The notes under the pieces were generated by a model that worked only from the letters and a program-made list of their open reading frames with translations, was not told the DNA's origin and ran no database searches. The position numbers and the translations under genes are program-made. Positions 39,684 through 47,835 of a stretch of 64,000 bases of DNA are shown in pieces. Each line of letters opens with the position of its first letter. The stretch's first letter is position 1. Source of the stretch: Myxococcales bacterium (GTDB lineage: Bacteria > Myxococcota > Myxococcia > Myxococcales > Myxococcaceae); assembly GCA_016191815.1 (NCBI GenBank), contig JACPVI010000006.1:186001-250000 (forward strand), read 5' to 3'.

Positions 39684-41054
39684 GTGACGGCGCGGCTGAC
39701 GCTGGCCACCGCGCTTTGTGTGTGTGCTTCGGCCCGGGCCCAGGCGGGCTTCGAGTGGAAGGCCGCCCTGGATGCAGGGTCGGTGCGCCAGGTGATGGTC
39801 GCCGAGCTCGACGGGGCCGGGCCGCCGGAGCTGGCGATCCTCTCTGCCACCGGTGAGCTTTGGGTCTACTCCGAGCCGGCGCCCTTCGCGTTCGTGCTGA
39901 GCGCCTCGCTGCGGACTCCCGGGTACGCCCTGGCGGTCGCGCGCGGCGACCTCGAGGGCGACGGTATGCCGGACCTGATCGCCTCCTACTATGTCTTCCC
40001 CGGAGCGGACGGAGGGTTGGAACCTGGCCTCGCCCTCTTTCGCAACCTCGGAGGAGCTGCGTTCGCTTCGCCGGTGACGACTCCACTGGGCTTCATGTCG
40101 TTCGGGCTCGCGTCGGGCCGGATCGATGGCGACCCGTTCGATGACCTGGTAGTGGCAGCGCACAGCGGCACCTCCATCCGGCTGTCGGGGTCGCCGGCCG
40201 GGCTCGTTTCCCCCACGCCGATCGGGACGAACGCCGATCACCACTCGCCGGTGATCGCGGATCTCGACGGCGACGGCCTGCTGGACGTCGTGCAGGACAA
40301 CTGGGCCACCCAGGACCTCGCGCTGCTGCTTCAAAGGGCCGACGGCGGTTTTCCGGAATCGACCGTGGCCCTGGACGGTGGCGGCGAGGCCTTTCCGGTG
40401 ATCGCCGCGGATCTCGATCGGGCCCTGGGCCCCGACTTGGCGGTCCTCACCCGTTCCCCGCCCAGGCGAGTTTGGGTCTTCCTCTCCGCTTCGCAGAAGC
40501 CGCTCTCGTTCCGTCCGCCCGCCAGCTTCATCATTCCCTCGGCCGCTGCGCTCGCCTCCGGCGACGTGGACGGAGACGGCTGGATCGACCTGGTCTGCGG
40601 ACTGGGGCCCGACCGGCAGCTGGCTTGGCTCCGCGGCGCCGGCGACGGAGGCTTCTCCCCGCCGGAGCCCTTCGACACCCCGGGCTACGCCTATTCGGTG
40701 GAGGTCGCCGACCTCGACTCCGACGGCCGCGCCGACGCGCTGGTCGGCGATCCAGTCGCGGGGCTGGTCCACGTGCTGCGGTCCGCCTTCGACGCGGGCG
40801 CCGGCGGTGGAGCCGATGCAGGCGCGGGCGCAGGCTCCGACGCGGGGCCGCCGGATGCTGGATTCGACGCAGGGCCCTCCGACGCCTCGGTGGACGCAGG
40901 CAGCGCCGGCGCGGCCCAGGCTTCCGGATGCGACGGAGGCTGCGAGCCCGAGGCCGCCCCGCCACCGGCTCCTCCACCCGGCTGCGGCTGCGGCCACGCG
41001 CTGGTGATGGCGCTCGCGGCTGCGGCGGGCGTCCTGCGGCGGCGTCCCGGCTGA
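39684..41054 (+). CDS. FG-GAP/VCBS repeat protein with MYXO-CTERM-type tail
   Basis: A 456-residue secreted protein. After a signal peptide (ending SARAQAG) come about seven FG-GAP/VCBS-like blades, with calcium-type loops such as DLEGDGMPDL, DLDGDGLLDV, DVDGDGWIDL and DLDSDGRADA. A low-complexity linker of Asp-Ala-Gly repeats (about residues 375-420) leads to the C-terminal signal GCGCG, a hydrophobic helix and LRRRPG. It should be sorted to the surface by the myxosortase route. GTG 39684 lies three bases after the AAA+ stop, so it is probably co-transcribed. Confidence 0.82.
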   Translation: MTARLTLATALCVCASARAQAGFEWKAALDAGSVRQVMVAELDGAGPPELAILSATGELWVYSEPAPFAFVLSASLRTPGYALAVARGDLEGDGMPDLIASYYVFPGADGGLEPGLALFRNLGGAAFASPVTTPLGFMSFGLASGRIDGDPFDDLVVAAHSGTSIRLSGSPAGLVSPTPIGTNADHHSPVIADLDGDGLLDVVQDNWATQDLALLLQRADGGFPESTVALDGGGEAFPVIAADLDRALGPDLAVLTRSPPRRVWVFLSASQKPLSFRPPASFIIPSAAALASGDVDGDGWIDLVCGLGPDRQLAWLRGAGDGGFSPPEPFDTPGYAYSVEVADLDSDGRADALVGDPVAGLVHVLRSAFDAGAGGGADAGAGAGSDAGPPDAGFDAGPSDASVDAGSAGAAQASGCDGGCEPEAAPPPAPPPGCGCGHALVMALAAAAGVLRRRPG

Positions 41055-42062: not shown

Positions 42063-42224
42063 TCAGCGTCGCGGCGGGTGCTTCCGCAGCTTTCGCTGGA
42101 GCGATCGCCGGTGAAGCGAAAGGCGCCGGGCGGCCTCGGAGACGTTGCCGCCGCAGTCCGAGAGCACCCTCTGGATGTGCTCCCACTCGGCGCGGGCGAG
42201 CGAGGGCGCCGTGGCGTTCTTCAT
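42063..42224 (-). pseudogene. RegA/PrrA-type response regulator remnant (Fis-like helix-turn-helix only)
   Basis: Only 53 residues are left. SLARAEWEHIQRVLSDCGGN followed by VSEAARRLSLHRRSLQRKL is the C-terminal DNA-binding part of RegA/PrrA/ActR redox regulators and matches it closely. The receiver domain of about 120 residues with its phosphorylated Asp is missing. The ATG overlaps the stop of the RegB-like remnant by ATGA. The first residues (MKNA) look like the N-box of the kinase read in another frame, which suggests a deletion that joined the two genes. It may still be translated as a small DNA-binding protein. Confidence 0.65.
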
Positions 42225-43189
42225 GAGGCCTCGAACCCGCGAGTCACGGTGCGGTGAGGGACCGACAGCCGGCACCGTGCCGCTTGCTCCGTCAGCTCGA
42301 TGCGAATCGGACGATCCTCCGACAGGCCCGCGGCAGCCTCGTCGAGCAAGGAGGCCACACCGATGGCGTGGGCCGGCTCGGTGGCTTCCACCTCGGCGTC
42401 GGCGGCCATCTGGAGCAGGATCTCGCGGCCGCGCTGCACCTGCTGCCGGATGAGGGCGGCGTCGGCGGCGGCCTCCGCTCCGTTCGGGGTCAGCTGGCGC
42501 TCCAGCTCGCGAGCCGCCACTGCGATCGAGGAAAGCGGCGTGGACAGTTCGTGGGCCGCACCGGCCGACAGCGTCGCCAGCGCCACGATCTTCTCGCTCC
42601 GGGCGGCCTGGGCCCGCGCCTCGGAGAGCTGGGCGTTCCGCAGGGACAGCGCGCTGGTCACCCGGTGCACGAAGTGCACGATGAACCCCGCCGCGAGCGC
42701 GAACGCCACCCACATGCCCTGCAGGTGGATCTGCACGTTGTGCTGCATCTTGGAGGTGTCAGAGCTGTCAAGCTTGAGCCAGACATGGTCCACGAAGAGC
42801 ACGCCGAAGCAGAGGCAGCAGAGCGCCACCAAGAGCCAGCTCAACCGCGAGGTGAGGATCGCCGCCGCCAGGGCGATGTGGACCAGGTAGAGCGAGCTGA
42901 ACGGGTTGAACGGGCCTCCGGTGAGGTACAGGAGCGTCGTGAGGATCACCACATCGAGCGCCATCACTGCCCAGAGCGTCCATTCGTTCACCGTGCTCGA
43001 GCGCCGCATCCAGAAGGTGGCGGCGAGGTTGGTGAGCAACTGGACGAAGACGGCGGCGAGCAGCGGCGCCAGCGGGAGGTGAATCCGGAGGTAGACCTGG
43101 ACGAAGGCGATCACCAGGAGCTGCCCGAGGGCGGCACCCCACCTCAGCTTGAGCAGCCACGAGAGGTTGATGGAGTTGGCGTTCGTCAT
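42221..43189 (-). pseudogene. RegB/PrrB-type sensor kinase remnant lacking the ATP-binding lobe
   Basis: 322 residues. Five or six membrane helices (residues about 10-170) with the GGPFNPFSSLYLVHIALAA segment that corresponds to the quinone-sensing GGxxNPF motif of RegB. Then a linker and the phosphorylation helix with the H-box His in AHELSTPLSSIAVAARELER. After a further 70 residues the reading frame ends. The N, G1, F and G2 boxes that bind ATP are absent, so autophosphorylation is impossible. A one-base shift at the end would read on into LMKNA, an N-box-like sequence now used as the start of the regulator remnant. Likely a decayed redox two-component system. Confidence 0.68.
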
Positions 43190-43205: not shown

Positions 43206-44903
43206 CTATTGCCCGAGGAGCGTGAGCTCGATCCGCCGGCCTCGACGCTCGCCAACTTCGAGAGGGGGGCCGCCTTGGCTCCCCTCGGCGCTCACCCTTT
43301 CTTCGGCCACTCCCCGCTCGAGGAGGTAGTCCCTTACCGCCGCCGCTCGAAGCGCGGCCAGCGCCCGATTGGATTCCGGCGAACCGGCGTCGCCGGGGTG
43401 GGATTCGATTCGCACCCGGATGCCCGGCTGGCGCAGGAGGATGTCGGCCACCTCGTCCAGCGTGGAGGTGGAGTCCTCGAGCAGGCGCGCCTCCTCGAAG
43501 GCGAACTCGATCGGCTGGAGGAGATCGATGCGCCCTTCGCCGAGTCTCGCCGCCCTAGCCTCGGGCGCCTCCCGCAGGATCATCTCCACGGTAACGACTT
43601 CGCCAGCGCGGGCCGAAACCCGGCGAGCGGCGACCAGGTGGCCCGGCGCACGCACCTCGAGCCGGTAGGCGCCTGGTGGAAGCTCGAGCTCGAGCTGTCC
43701 CGTGGTGAGCGGATAGCTCTGCGCAAGAGCGGCCTCCCCATTCCAGAGCGGGGTGACCGAGATCTCGAGCGGTCCCCCCGCGCCTGCCGGCGCCGACGCA
43801 CGGACGATGGCCTTGGCTTGGCCGCTCGCTTGGCCGCCCAGCACCACTTGCGAGGGCTGGGGACTCCACCCGCTCCACAGCCGACCAAAGTCGAGCTGGT
43901 AGCCGAGCTGGGCGAAGACCCCGTACGGGTAGTACCTCGCCGGGGCGCGGTAGAGCCGGCCGCTCATCCCCGCGAGCACCCGGCCCGGGCCGGCGTCGAA
44001 GCTCGCCCCCAGCCAGGCGCCGATTCCGGCTCCGAGGCCTTCCGGAGTGGGGTGCGCCACCGCGCTCAGCTCGACGAAGGGAGAAATCTCTCCGGCTCTT
44101 TCTCCCCAAGGGTGGAGCCCGACGAATGCCCGGCCCCCCGCCGCGCGCCCGAAGACCGCCGCGGCACCCGCGCCGAGCCTGGGGCCGAACGCATAGGCAA
44201 CCCCACACTCGCCACCGCTCTGGCGGGAGACCGCGTCGCGAAAACCCGTCACCACGAAGCGAAGACCGGGGCCTGGTGCCGGCGGCCCGGAGGACGGAGC
44301 TTCCGCCAGCGCGGGGCCCCCGATGAGCGCCGCGATTGCGGCCCACCTTGCCGCCTGTCGCCTGGCCCGGAGGAGTGGAAGCCGAAGCAGCCACAGCCCC
44401 ACTCCCGCTCCCCAAAGGAGGTCCGCGCCGCTCCGCCCGGTGGCGTTGCAGCTCCAGCCGGCCATGCCGAGCCGAGCCTCGGGCGCGAGCTCTTCCCCGG
44501 GGCCCGGGGGCTCGCCACCGTCGAGCGCTCCTTCGACGCACACCGAGTCTCGGCAGCGGTAACCGGTCGCGCAGTCGCCGTCCGAGGCGCAGCCGGTCGG
44601 GCAGCTCGCGCCCTTCCCGTCACAGACGTAGGGCGCACAGGAGGGCTTGCCGGCGGTGCCGGGGGGAGAGGCGCGACAAAGTCCAAAGGCGTCGGCACTG
44701 TCGCACTCGTCGCAGGGGCCGTCGCAGGGCGTGTCACAGCAGGTGCCCGCGATGCAGTTTTTCGAGACGCACTCGCTCGGTTCGGTGCAGAACCCGATGT
44801 GAAACGGCTGGCCCTCCTCGAACCTCTCTGGGCCCGGCTGGTACGCGATGCAGACCGCGACCCCCGCGATCGGCGCCAGGGTCCATGTGATGGTGGAGGG
44901 CAT
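43206..44903 (-). CDS. Fusion: Cys-rich sorting-signal module plus OmpA-type outer-membrane protein
   Basis: 565 residues in one open frame. Residues 1-150 are a signal segment and a Cys-rich region (CDTPCDGPCDECDSADAFG, CPTGCASDGDC). Next comes LGMAGWSCNATG with a hydrophobic stretch and LLRARR, which looks like a C-terminal sorting signal. Instead of stopping it runs directly into AARWAAIAALIGGPALAEA, which looks like a fresh signal peptide, then a beta-barrel-like part and an OmpA peptidoglycan-binding domain at the C-terminus (VRIESHPGDAGSPESNRALA, ending RRIELTLLG). No ATG, GTG or TTG is present at the junction. The parallel gene at 46425 stops right after its GWSC signal, so this is probably a read-through fusion of two genes. 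Confidence 0.65.
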   Translation of the reverse strand: MPSTITWTLAPIAGVAVCIAYQPGPERFEEGQPFHIGFCTEPSECVSKNCIAGTCCDTPCDGPCDECDSADAFGLCRASPPGTAGKPSCAPYVCDGKGASCPTGCASDGDCATGYRCRDSVCVEGALDGGEPPGPGEELAPEARLGMAGWSCNATGRSGADLLWGAGVGLWLLRLPLLRARRQAARWAAIAALIGGPALAEAPSSGPPAPGPGLRFVVTGFRDAVSRQSGGECGVAYAFGPRLGAGAAAVFGRAAGGRAFVGLHPWGERAGEISPFVELSAVAHPTPEGLGAGIGAWLGASFDAGPGRVLAGMSGRLYRAPARYYPYGVFAQLGYQLDFGRLWSGWSPQPSQVVLGGQASGQAKAIVRASAPAGAGGPLEISVTPLWNGEAALAQSYPLTTGQLELELPPGAYRLEVRAPGHLVAARRVSARAGEVVTVEMILREAPEARAARLGEGRIDLLQPIEFAFEEARLLEDSTSTLDEVADILLRQPGIRVRIESHPGDAGSPESNRALAALRAAAVRDYLLERGVAEERVSAEGSQGGPPLEVGERRGRRIELTLLGQ

Positions 44904-44924
44904 CCGCTGGCGGAATGATACACC

Positions 44925-44943
44925 GGGCCGCCATTGGCGGCCC
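44925..44943. promoter_or_regulatory. 19-bp inverted repeat in a divergent promoter region
   Basis: GGGCCGCC and GGCGGCCC flank a 3-base ATT centre, 22 bases upstream of the OmpA-fusion start. On the minus strand a TGTATCAT sequence (extended -10-like) lies just after it, so the repeat would overlap a -35 region. The 284-base divergent gap to the TolC-type gene holds no gene I can support. Confidence 0.35.
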
Positions 44944-45187
44944 TCGCGCTGCGTGCGCCGGTTTCCTGTGTTTGCCAACACCGGCATCCGGGCGCCACAA
45001 TCGCTCTCCCCGAGGAAAGGCCTGGCGATGCCACCGACAGCCAGTGCTTGCTGCGTTCGATGTCTTCTCGTTGCCGGCGCGTTGGCAGATGAAGCGCTCG
45101 CGAAGGTCCCGCCGCTCGATGTTGGTCACGCCGCCGCCTTCCTCTACTCTCATCCGCTCCTCGACCTCCTGCCCGACACCTCGATCA

Positions 45188-46501
45188 ATGGGCTACGCTC
45201 TCCGCAAGATCATCGCCGCGACCGTGCTGCTGTCCGCGGGCGCGGCCCGGCCCGAGTCCTTGAGCCTCGCCGCGGCGATCGACCTCGCCGACCGCAACAG
45301 CCCGGCGCTGGCGAGCGCCCGCGCCGAAGTCGATGCCGCGCGGGGCGCGGTGGCCCAGGCCCAGCTCCGACTGCAGGCGAACCCGGCGATCGAGCTGGAG
45401 TACGCCTCGGACGCCTTCACCACCGGCGCCGGGGACCAGCGCCTCCACGCGATGGTGCGCCAGGAAGTGGAGGTCGCCGGTCAGCCTTCGGCTCGCCGCC
45501 GGGCGGCGGTGCTGGGGCTCGAGGCCGCCGAGGCTCGCCTCTCCCAGGTCCGCGCCGACGTCCGGGCCGAGGTGACCCACGCCTACGCGAGGGTGCACTC
45601 GCTGCAGCGCCGGCTGGCGCTCGCTCGCGGGGTGGAGAAGCTGGCCGTGGCGGTGGCGGAGGCAGCGCTGCGGCGGTTGAAGGAGGGAGACGTCTCGGAG
45701 GTGGACGCTGCCATCCTCGCCGCCGACGCCGCCCGCTTTCGGGCACAGATGCGTTCCGCTTCGGTGGAGATTGAGGCGGCACGCCGGGATCTGGGCGTGG
45801 CCGTCGGCTGGTCTCTCCCGCCCGACCTGGTGGTGGACGACATCCCCGAGCCTCCGGCGGCGCTGCCCGCGGCGGAACCGGCAATCGAGTCCCTGGCCGG
45901 TGTGGCCACCGAGCTGCGGGCGGCGGCGGCGAGGAGAGAGGAGCTGTCTCTGGTACGCCTGGAGCGGCTGCCCACCCCTTCGTTGGCGATCGGCTACGAG
46001 CGTGAGGCCTCCCCCATCGGTCCGCCCTCGCTCGGCCAGGCCCACGTGGATCACCTGATCGTCGCGAGAGTGGAGGTCCCGATTCCCCTGTGGAACCGCC
46101 GCGACGGAGAAATCGCGCGCGCCGCGGCGGCCCTGGACAGCGCGCAGGCCAAGGCGCGCGCGGCCCTGCTGGTCGCGGGGGCCCAGGTGCGCGCCGCGCG
46201 GACCAGCGCCAGCCTGGCGCTCGAGGTGGAGCGCTCCTTTGCCGAGGTGCTGCCGCGCGCGGAGAAGGCGTTGGGTATCGTGGAGGAGGCCTTCCGCGTC
46301 GGACAGCTCGGCCTCGCCGAGTACCGCGTCCGCCGAGACGCTCTCTACCAGGCTCAGGTCGACGCGATCGAGGCCCAGCTCGAGCGGGTCCGCGCAGTCT
46401 CCGAGCTGCAGCGCTTGCTGGTGGTCATCGGCGGCCGCGGCGGGAAGCCGAGCCAGGCCGCCCCCTCCGCCGGAGCAGCCACAGACTCACTCCGGCGGTG
46501 A
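45188..46501 (+). CDS. TolC/CusC-type outer-membrane efflux channel
   Basis: A 437-residue protein with a signal peptide (ending LSAGAARPES) and two homologous halves of long helices plus short strands, as in outer-membrane efflux factors. The start of the mature part (LSLAAAIDLADRNSPALASA) and PIPLWNRRDGEIARAAAALD in the second half are typical of the CzcC/CusC subgroup that works with heavy-metal RND pumps. No RND pump or adaptor is adjacent in this window. ATG 45188 chosen; upstream in-frame codons are in the divergent promoter. The 3' end overlaps the convergent gene by 77 bases. Confidence 0.85.
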   Translation: MGYALRKIIAATVLLSAGAARPESLSLAAAIDLADRNSPALASARAEVDAARGAVAQAQLRLQANPAIELEYASDAFTTGAGDQRLHAMVRQEVEVAGQPSARRRAAVLGLEAAEARLSQVRADVRAEVTHAYARVHSLQRRLALARGVEKLAVAVAEAALRRLKEGDVSEVDAAILAADAARFRAQMRSASVEIEAARRDLGVAVGWSLPPDLVVDDIPEPPAALPAAEPAIESLAGVATELRAAAARREELSLVRLERLPTPSLAIGYEREASPIGPPSLGQAHVDHLIVARVEVPIPLWNRRDGEIARAAAALDSAQAKARAALLVAGAQVRAARTSASLALEVERSFAEVLPRAEKALGIVEEAFRVGQLGLAEYRVRRDALYQAQVDAIEAQLERVRAVSELQRLLVVIGGRGGKPSQAAPSAGAATDSLRR

Positions 46502-47567
46502 GGAGCCCCGGCGAGCCGGCCCGAGCGGCGCAGCTCCAGCCCGCCATCCCAACCCTGGTCGAGGGGGCGCCGGCATCGACCGCAGCGCCGCCGTCGGTCG
46601 GTCGCCCCCCGTCGGAGCCTTGCTCCGGCAAGCAGACCGAGCTCCGGCAACGGCGCCCTGCCGCGCAGTGAGCGTCGGAGGTGCAGCTCGTCGGACAAGC
46701 CGCGCTGTCCCCGCCGCAGGCGAAAGGCGCACAGGGAGGGTCGCCCGCGCTGCCGGCCGGAAGTGCGCGGCACTGGCCCGCGGGCTCGCACCCGGCGCAG
46801 GGACCGCACCCGCCGGGGGAACAGCGGCCGCCGTCGGACACTCCGGCGTCGAGGTAGGGCCCTCCGGGGACCCAGAGCATTCCGCGCCAGGTGGTCTCGC
46901 ACGGCGGCTCATTCGGCGCCTCCGCCCTCGCGTAGAGCTGGTAGAGGCCCTTGGGGATGCCCGCCACCGAGAAGGGGTATCGACCCTCTCCACCGCCGTC
47001 GGGCAGCTCCAACCCCTCCGCGATGCCGTAGACGCCGGTCGCGTCGCGGTACTTGAGGGAGACCGAAGTGGCGCTATCCGGATCGTGCACCCGGAAGCGG
47101 ATCTCGAAGGTGCCGTAGGGGTCCACCAGCTCGCCGGGCGTATTCGCGATCCAGACCGCTGGCGGGACAAAGCTCGGCCCCGGGACGGTGACCTTCCCCT
47201 GCGACTCGACATACTCGTCGCCCTCCACGGGATCTCGGAGCATCGCGTAAGGCTGGTAGCAGCCGGCCGGAGCCGCAGAGGTGACCCAGGCGTAAGTGTC
47301 GCCGGCATCAGCGACGAGGAGGCTGGTCGGATTGATCAGGACGTCCGGAGCCTGCGAGCCCGTTTGGGGCCAGCCGGACAGCGCGCGCCTGGAGGCATAG
47401 AAGTCCAGCATCACGGTGCCGAGAGGTTCGTACGCGGACCAGCGGATCAGCGCCATTCCGCCATCCGGGAGATTGCCCACCCCATCCGGCGCCAGGAAGG
47501 TGAAGAGGGTTCCGTGCGCGAGCGCCGCAAAGGGGCTCAAGAGGAGCGCGGCCGCGATTGCTCTCAT
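46425..47567 (-). CDS. Secreted Cys-rich protein with GWSC-type C-terminal sorting signal
   Basis: 380 residues. Signal peptide at 1-18 (cleavage after AALA, before HGTLFTF). The mature protein starts with His, as in copper-binding lytic polysaccharide monooxygenase-like or chaperone-like proteins, though the fold is not established. Residues about 20-245 are a beta-rich domain. Then a Cys-rich region with 14 or more Cys (CGPCAGCEPAGQC, CPTSCTSDAHCAAG). The end is VGMAGWSC, a hydrophobic stretch, then LLRRRGRP and further Arg. The Cys-rich part and the GWSC signal match the N-terminal module of the gene at 43206. ATG 47567 preferred over TTG 47576. Confidence 0.72.
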   Translation of the reverse strand: MRAIAAALLLSPFAALAHGTLFTFLAPDGVGNLPDGGMALIRWSAYEPLGTVMLDFYASRRALSGWPQTGSQAPDVLINPTSLLVADAGDTYAWVTSAAPAGCYQPYAMLRDPVEGDEYVESQGKVTVPGPSFVPPAVWIANTPGELVDPYGTFEIRFRVHDPDSATSVSLKYRDATGVYGIAEGLELPDGGGEGRYPFSVAGIPKGLYQLYARAEAPNEPPCETTWRGMLWVPGGPYLDAGVSDGGRCSPGGCGPCAGCEPAGQCRALPAGSAGDPPCAPFACGGDSAACPTSCTSDAHCAAGRRCRSSVCLPEQGSDGGRPTDGGAAVDAGAPSTRVGMAGWSCAARAGSPGLLTAGVSLWLLRRRGRPGSASRRGRR

Positions 47568-47835
47568 GCCCGGCAATCAACGTCCAGGCGGCTGCACGAC
47601 GCAAGGGCCCGGCATGGCCGGCGCTGGCCACCCGAGCTGGCGATCCGCACGCCAAGCCGATCGGAGGACGGCCCTGGAGCTGCCGGGCAAGTCTTCCTCC
47701 GCTTGCGAGAAACAGTACCCGCGGCGCATGCCGAGGCGGGGTCCACGACACCCTCAACGCTCGCCTCGAGGATTTCCGCCAGTCCGCCGAGTACCTGGCT
47801 GGTTGGCTCGCGCGGCAGGGGCCCGACGGGCCGGG

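What the first reader, a model, noticed from the sequence alone, without database searches (positions are those of the whole stretch)
43206..44903. Read-through fusion of a sorting-signal protein with an OmpA protein
The GWSC motif, helix and LLRARR in the middle of this frame match the very end of the gene at 46425, where a stop follows. Here the frame continues into a signal-peptide-like stretch and a complete OmpA-type protein. No start codon exists at the junction. A lost stop codon (for example CGA from TGA just after the Arg cluster) would explain it.
Basis: partly seen in the sequence, partly recalled or inferred. Interest (0 to 1): 0.5.

Follow-up and report, generated by a model that had tools for sequence, protein, structure and literature searches.

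The report
Built-in fusion of two surface proteins
One bacterial gene here codes for two cell-surface proteins in a single chain, with a likely cutting signal for each kept in the middle; relatives carry the same arrangement, so it looks like a real design that evolution has made more than once and not a lost stop codon.

Summary
In detail: window 43206-44903 (-) is one frame of Cys-rich stalk, GWSC-helix-Arg tag, signal-peptide-like helix ending ALA, 8-strand barrel and OmpA domain. The same order occurs in frame at four further places in three genomes (own contig C26, G009, G038 twice); the two-gene version, overlapping by 4 bases, occurs at three places, one in the same genome. In a second, TraB-like barrel family, 42 of 100 best-ranked places were scored fused and 40 as adjacent gene pairs. 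Seven chosen fused/split near-orthologue pairs differ by a 44-74-base stretch carrying the stop and a next start. Trees reject one origin of the fused state. A lost stop alone would leave the OmpA part startless. Best reading: a polyprotein cut by myxosortase at the tag and by signal peptidase I after ALA; the Arg cluster serves both signals. The cuts are inferred. One such protein, MXAN_5598, is already in print as an atypical fusion likened to TraA+TraB. Added here: a second barrel family, recurrence, how fusions arise, and that they are not rare (at least 43 of 195 genomes searched).

The parts
43206..44903 (-). whole fused frame, 565 aa (593 aa if the in-frame ATG at 44987 is used), stop included
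44835..44903 (-). N-terminal hydrophobic stretch, probable export signal (weak n-region if the ATG at 44903 is the start)
   Evidence: sequence; inference
44538..44789 (-). Cys-rich stalk (res 39-122), resembles the neighbour at 46425-47576
   Evidence: no Pfam family at E<=0.01 for the N-part
44448..44459 (-). GWSC motif (res 149-152), presumed lipidation and myxosortase site
   Evidence: not matched by the TIGR03901 model
44370..44420 (-). first transmembrane helix of the tag (res 162-178)
   Evidence: sequence; hydropathy
44346..44369 (-). shared Arg cluster RARRQAAR (res 179-186)
   Evidence: sequence
44304..44345 (-). second hydrophobic segment ending in ALA (res 187-200), signal-peptide-like
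43887..44267 (-). 8-stranded barrel (res 213-339), family A1
   Evidence: AlphaFold model (eight strands, block pLDDT 83-96)
43578..43817 (-). small beta domain (res 363-442); weak CarboxypepD_reg/PEGA matches below cut-off
43281..43505 (-). OmpA peptidoglycan-binding domain PF00691
46425..47576 (-). neighbouring unfused gene with the same kind of tag (VGMAGWSC...LLRRRGR) and a stop

Best explanation
A genuine, established fusion gene. It makes one precursor whose two halves are both exported. The first half (Cys-rich stalk) is held by a MYXO-CTERM-like tag (GWSC, helix, Arg cluster); the Arg cluster sits in the cytoplasm and at once serves as the positive n-region of the following signal peptide, which returns the chain to the periplasm. 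Myxosortase MrtX cuts at the Cys and leaves a lipid-anchored surface protein; signal peptidase I cuts after ALA and releases an OmpA-type barrel to the outer membrane, tied to peptidoglycan. The two are made 1:1, a one-gene version of a TraA/TraB-style pair. Shown here: the open frame, its recurrence, the two-gene counterparts, the barrel and OmpA folds as predictions, and an MrtX gene in the genome. Inferred: lipidation, both cuts, topology, and partnership of the products.
For: Same order in frame at four further places of the A1 barrel family: G000:C26, G009:C444, G038:C84, G038:C48. Two-gene version at three places, all with 4-base overlaps: ATGA in G000:C35 and G038:C25, GTGA in G005:C152. 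TraB-type barrel family: of 100 fetched places 42 scored fused, 40 split tandem, 18 other. Of 48 fused junctions, 47 pass the test hydrophobic - Arg cluster - hydrophobic (the miss, L193, has only 2 R/K in its best 6-residue window); an A-X-A follows the second segment in 42 of those 47 and also in L193; the five without it are L104, L106, L116, L126, L131. Of 22,411 control windows elsewhere in the fetched frames of the 42, 0 pass the first test. L123 has no ATG/GTG/TTG between Cys and barrel; L126 only a TTG beyond the second signal. Own genome: one MrtX (346.7 bits, cut-off 180) and 15 tags over the MYXO-CTERM cut-off.
Against: The window's tag is not recognised by TIGR03901: absent from the own-genome search at E<=10 and no NCBIfam family at E<=1 for the 36-residue stretch. 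No cleavage, lipidation or localisation was measured. An in-frame GTG at 44402 leaves a chance of an extra internal start. The first hydrophobic segment and the Arg cluster were part of the selection rule for the fused TraB-type places, so only the second segment and A-X-A are independent there. The N-part here is short and has no receptor domain found, so a TraA-like role is unproven. The A1 tree has no starred branch. No raw reads were available.
Confidence: 0.75

Rival explanations
1. Two genes merged only in this sequence by a lost stop codon, or by a sequencing or assembly error.
For: The tag is described as a C-terminal one (PMC11980579, abstract) and the neighbour's tag at 46425 is followed by a stop. 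No raw reads could be checked.
Against: The same in-frame fusion recurs at four other A1 places and in TraB-type proteins; a stop at the junction would leave the OmpA part without an ATG, GTG or TTG; codon-position GC is continuous.
Confidence: 0.04
2. The OmpA part is translated separately from an internal start (GTG at 44402) as well as, or instead of, from the fused chain.
For: In-frame GTG at 44402 preceded by GGGGAG; most other fused copies also have in-frame ATG/GTG/TTG codons near the junction.
Against: The GTG lies inside the first helix, so the product would carry part of that helix as well as the second segment; fused copies exist without any usable start there: L123 none, L126 only a TTG past the second signal.
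Confidence: 0.1
3. The fused chain stays uncut and works as one long envelope-spanning protein.
For: The fusion is in frame in many genomes and arose more than once.
Against: A barrel needs release from the inner membrane to reach the outer membrane (general knowledge); an A-X-A follows the second segment in 43 of 48 junctions; MrtX cuts the TraA tag experimentally (PMC11980579, abstract).
Confidence: 0.1

Closest known systems
MXAN_5598 of Myxococcus xanthus (Guo, Haft and Wall 2025, PMC11980579; abstract, section 12 part 1 and passages seen)
   Same: N-part, internal MYXO-CTERM, C-part with OM barrel and OmpA domain; the authors suggest a two-gene fusion and processing of the N-part, and compare it with TraA+TraB
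   Different: Here a short Cys-rich N-part instead of a large adhesin, a small 8-strand barrel (A1), and a GWSC tag that the MYXO-CTERM model does not match. MXAN_5598's own sequence was not fetched, so that its barrel belongs to the TraB-like family A3 is a guess.
TraA/TraB of Myxococcus xanthus
   Same: Cys-rich protein with a MYXO-CTERM tag next to a barrel-OmpA protein; ORFs overlap by four bases (PMC3325183, passages), as in the three split A1 pairs
   Different: Two genes; TraA has a PA14-like domain and TraB thrombospondin type 3 repeats (PMC6372800, passages), neither found in the window's protein; the window's match to the TraB model is the OmpA domain only, 45.2 bits against a 700-bit cut-off
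OmpA (8-strand barrel plus PF00691)
   Same: Eight predicted strands then an OmpA domain; OmpA/Pal-type domains are the best hits among solved structures
   Different: A small beta domain lies between them; no solved structure in the rows shown matched the barrel by sequence, and the top Foldseek rows are OmpA/Pal-type domains of about 100 columns (ranges not printed)

Membership tests
Internal MYXO-CTERM / OmpA fusion (MXAN_5598 kind) | Cys motif - helix - Arg cluster inside the frame, followed by barrel and OmpA domain | tested here: met
MYXO-CTERM (TIGR03901) | match to the curated model, cut-off 20 bits | tested here: not met
   no match for the window's tag; the split pair's tag at G000:C35 scores 18.8 and 14.6 bits
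MYXO-CTERM (TIGR03901) | tripartite layout: Cys motif, transmembrane helix, Arg-rich cytoplasmic end | tested here: met
MYXO-CTERM (TIGR03901) | cleavage by myxosortase | not testable with these tools
   an MrtX gene is present in the genome
TraB (NF033763) | score over 700 bits | tested here: not met
   45.2 bits, OmpA domain only
OmpA family (PF00691) | score over 27.2 bits | tested here: met
   55 bits, 51 bits

The most novel reading that the evidence does not exclude
Myxococcota repeatedly turn overlapping or adjacent receptor-barrel gene pairs into single polyprotein genes by losing the short stop-plus-start stretch, so that one Arg cluster serves both as the cytoplasmic end of a sorting tag and as the start of the next signal peptide. 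This would be a widespread way of making surface lipoprotein and barrel partners in equal numbers, not a rare oddity, and the window shows it in a second barrel family.
Probability: 0.55. Interest if true: 0.5.

Novelty: new variant of a known kind. Interest (0 to 1): 0.42.

Why it matters
It shows that a sorting tag thought of as C-terminal is quite often internal, giving candidate polyproteins in the bacterial envelope that could be cut by two different proteases. It offers natural fused/split near-orthologue pairs for testing whether myxosortase works inside a chain, and whether TraA/TraB-like partners need equal, linked production. For annotation, it warns against splitting such frames or flagging them as errors.

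Tried and rejected
Lost stop codon or assembly error: rejected on recurrence and on the missing start codon. Internal start: kept as a minor rival. Phage or plasmid origin: no match in either collection. Named relatives in genome contigs: two hits over the OmpA end only (query res 446-565), in records titled Bacteroidia and Lentiprolixibacter, not useful; the window's organism was therefore not named. Solved-structure and Foldseek searches gave OmpA-type domains and no barrel match that I could see in the rows shown; a few long Foldseek rows have rmsd near 20. The TraB model was tested and not met. A first classification script picked wrong domains and was replaced. A paper search for bacterial polyproteins with internal signal peptides listed three unrelated papers; a search for TraA/TraB single-gene fusions listed three, none opened for this.

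Full report
WHAT IS THERE. Window 43206-44903 (-) is one frame of 565 aa, or 593 aa from the in-frame ATG at 44987. In order: a hydrophobic N-terminus; a Cys-rich stalk (res 39-122); LGMAGWSC, a helix and RARRQAAR (res 145-186); a second hydrophobic segment ending ALA (res 187-200); a barrel (res 213-339); a small beta domain; an OmpA domain (PF00691, 51 bits, 55 bits). The neighbour at 46425-47576 has the same kind of stalk and tag (52% over res 53-212, a match that runs past its stop). Only one ATG/GTG/TTG lies between GWSC and ALA, a GTG at 44402 inside the first helix. GC at the third codon position is 0.86 / 0.83 / 0.81 in N-part, junction and C-part.

A search of 60 genomes, the own one included, and the reading of the frames found them. 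With a profile of the barrel (A1, nine rows), 7 of 195 genomes of the phylum had a match at E<=1e-5, 15 places, of which 12 scored E 8.6e-18 or better (nine of these twelve are rows of the profile). Of those 12: five fused (the window, G000:C26, G009:C444, G038:C84, G038:C48); three tandem pairs, tag gene then barrel gene (G000:C35, G038:C25, G005:C152); four with no tag gene recognised next to them (G005:C365, G005:C491, G000:C72, G065:C6). In all three pairs the genes overlap by four bases (ATGA, ATGA, GTGA), as published for traA/traB (PMC3325183, passages). Fused and split versions thus coexist in the window's own genome. On the barrel tree (12 rows, 115 columns) no branch is starred, but a single clade of the five fused is rejected (AU p 0.0016).

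A SECOND BARREL FAMILY. Twenty OmpA-domain regions, chosen mainly for long open frames, were fetched; the script found an internal Cys-helix-Arg tag in six. Their barrels are TraB-like: L079 scores 207.8 bits with NF033763, its best stretch covering model positions 4-318, under the 700-bit cut-off. A profile of these six (A3) rings in 173 of 195 genomes at E<=1e-8. I took the first 105 rows of that listing: five had been read, all fused, and the other 100 were fetched. This is not a random sample, and the profile was built from fused proteins, so proportions are for that set only. Scored by script, the 100 are: 42 fused, 40 split tandem, 18 other. Of the 18, L106 is fused by eye (its helix missed the threshold), L136 and L181 are cut by a contig end, and the rest show no tag gene that the script recognised upstream. 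Counting genomes by hand, fused copies lie in 35 genomes of the 100-place set (L106 included), five more, and three more from family A1: 43 of the 195, a lower bound.

HOW FUSIONS ARISE. In seven fused/split pairs that I chose (70-94% DNA identity over about 330 bases), the fused copy lacks one main stretch of 44-74 bases that in the split copy carries the first gene's stop and a candidate start codon of the second, an ATG or an overlapping GTG (pair L126/L127 also, a clean 60-base gap at 94% identity); L110 has a further 3-base gap. On a tree of 40 TraB-type orthologues (13 fused, L106 counted as fused) six changes of state are needed, all six forced by starred branches, and one clade is rejected (AU p 2e-54). 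A tree of 44 that also held four distant rows, some long-branched, needed seven, four of them forced. Direction is not given by the method; fused rows nested among split ones suggest repeated fusion.

THE JUNCTION. Across 48 fused junctions (43 TraB-type including L106, five A1), 47 pass the test hydrophobic - Arg cluster - hydrophobic; L193 fails on its Arg count. A-X-A follows the second segment in 43 of 48 (not in L104, L106, L116, L126, L131). Of 22,411 control windows elsewhere in the fetched frames of the 42, 0 pass the first test. The first segment and the Arg cluster helped to choose the TraB-type set, so the second segment (present in 48 of 48) and A-X-A are the independent part. L123 has no start codon between Cys and barrel, so there the fused chain is the only route by ATG, GTG or TTG.

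MECHANISM. The genome search found four Rce1-like proteins; one is MrtX (346.7 bits, cut-off 180) and the other three are below the myxosortase cut-offs. MrtX cuts MYXO-CTERM in TraA and needs its cysteines (PMC11980579, abstract and passages). I infer: export of the N-part, anchoring by the tag helix with its Arg cluster inside, re-export by the second segment, MrtX cut at the Cys, signal peptidase I cut after ALA, barrel to the outer membrane. An AlphaFold2 model of the C-part (10 sequences, mean pLDDT 83.5, pTM 0.54) shows eight barrel strands, a beta domain and an OmpA fold. MXAN_5598 is listed as an OmpA domain protein among M. xanthus vesicle proteins (PMC4158809, one passage), which fits an outer-membrane product.

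AGAINST. The window's tag does not match TIGR03901. A profile of GWSC-type tags (A2) finds five places at E<1e-4 in this genome, but four of them are rows of that profile; the fifth, C33, is also over the MYXO-CTERM cut-off. No step of processing was measured. No Pfam family was found in the short N-part, so no TraA-like receptor domain is shown.

WHAT IS KNOWN. Guo, Haft and Wall (PMC11980579, section 12 part 1 and passages) describe MXAN_5598: internal MYXO-CTERM, adhesin N-part, barrel and OmpA C-part, possibly a two-gene fusion, similar to TraA plus TraB; they call ORFs with internal tags rare cases. In the held library 14 papers hold MYXO-CTERM or myxosortase and two hold MXAN_5598. I saw no other account of such fusions, but I looked into four papers only (passages, and one section of one).

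VERDICT. Real, known in kind, new in detail: a second barrel family with the same fused layout, recurrent fusions, and a simple route by which they arise.

Noticed in passing
42221-43187 (-): RegB/PrrB-like sensor kinase (NF033792 185.5 bits, model positions 4-299 of 423) with no ATPase domain found, running at once into a short Fis-like tail (MKNATAPSL..., by eye), as if the kinase's ATPase part and the regulator's receiver were lost together.
   Followed up: partly
46425-47576 (-) and 44915-46501 (+): The neighbouring tag gene and a TolC-like efflux gene (OEP) overlap at their 3' ends; the tag protein starts AHGTLF after its signal-peptide-like stretch (His first, by recall reminiscent of copper-binding enzymes) and matches no Pfam family at E<=1; a TIGR04201 Cys-repeat match is below cut-off.
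   Followed up: no
39684-41054 (+): Repeat protein (FG-GAP-like by eye) with a GCGCG...RRRPG end resembling MYXO-CTERM (weak NF045523 match).
   Followed up: no
L045, L064, L075 N-termini: By eye, several fused proteins begin with a lipobox-like stretch (such as VAAGC, LLSC), so the N-part might be lipidated at both ends.
   Followed up: no
L068 and L069: Barrels of the same A1 family end frames with a TPR-like N-part (by eye) and no OmpA part.
   Followed up: no
L039 (G000:C26): Own-genome paralogue C26 is a fused frame of 2137 aa with propeller-like repeats (by eye) and a long Cys-rich stalk ahead of the tag.
   Followed up: partly
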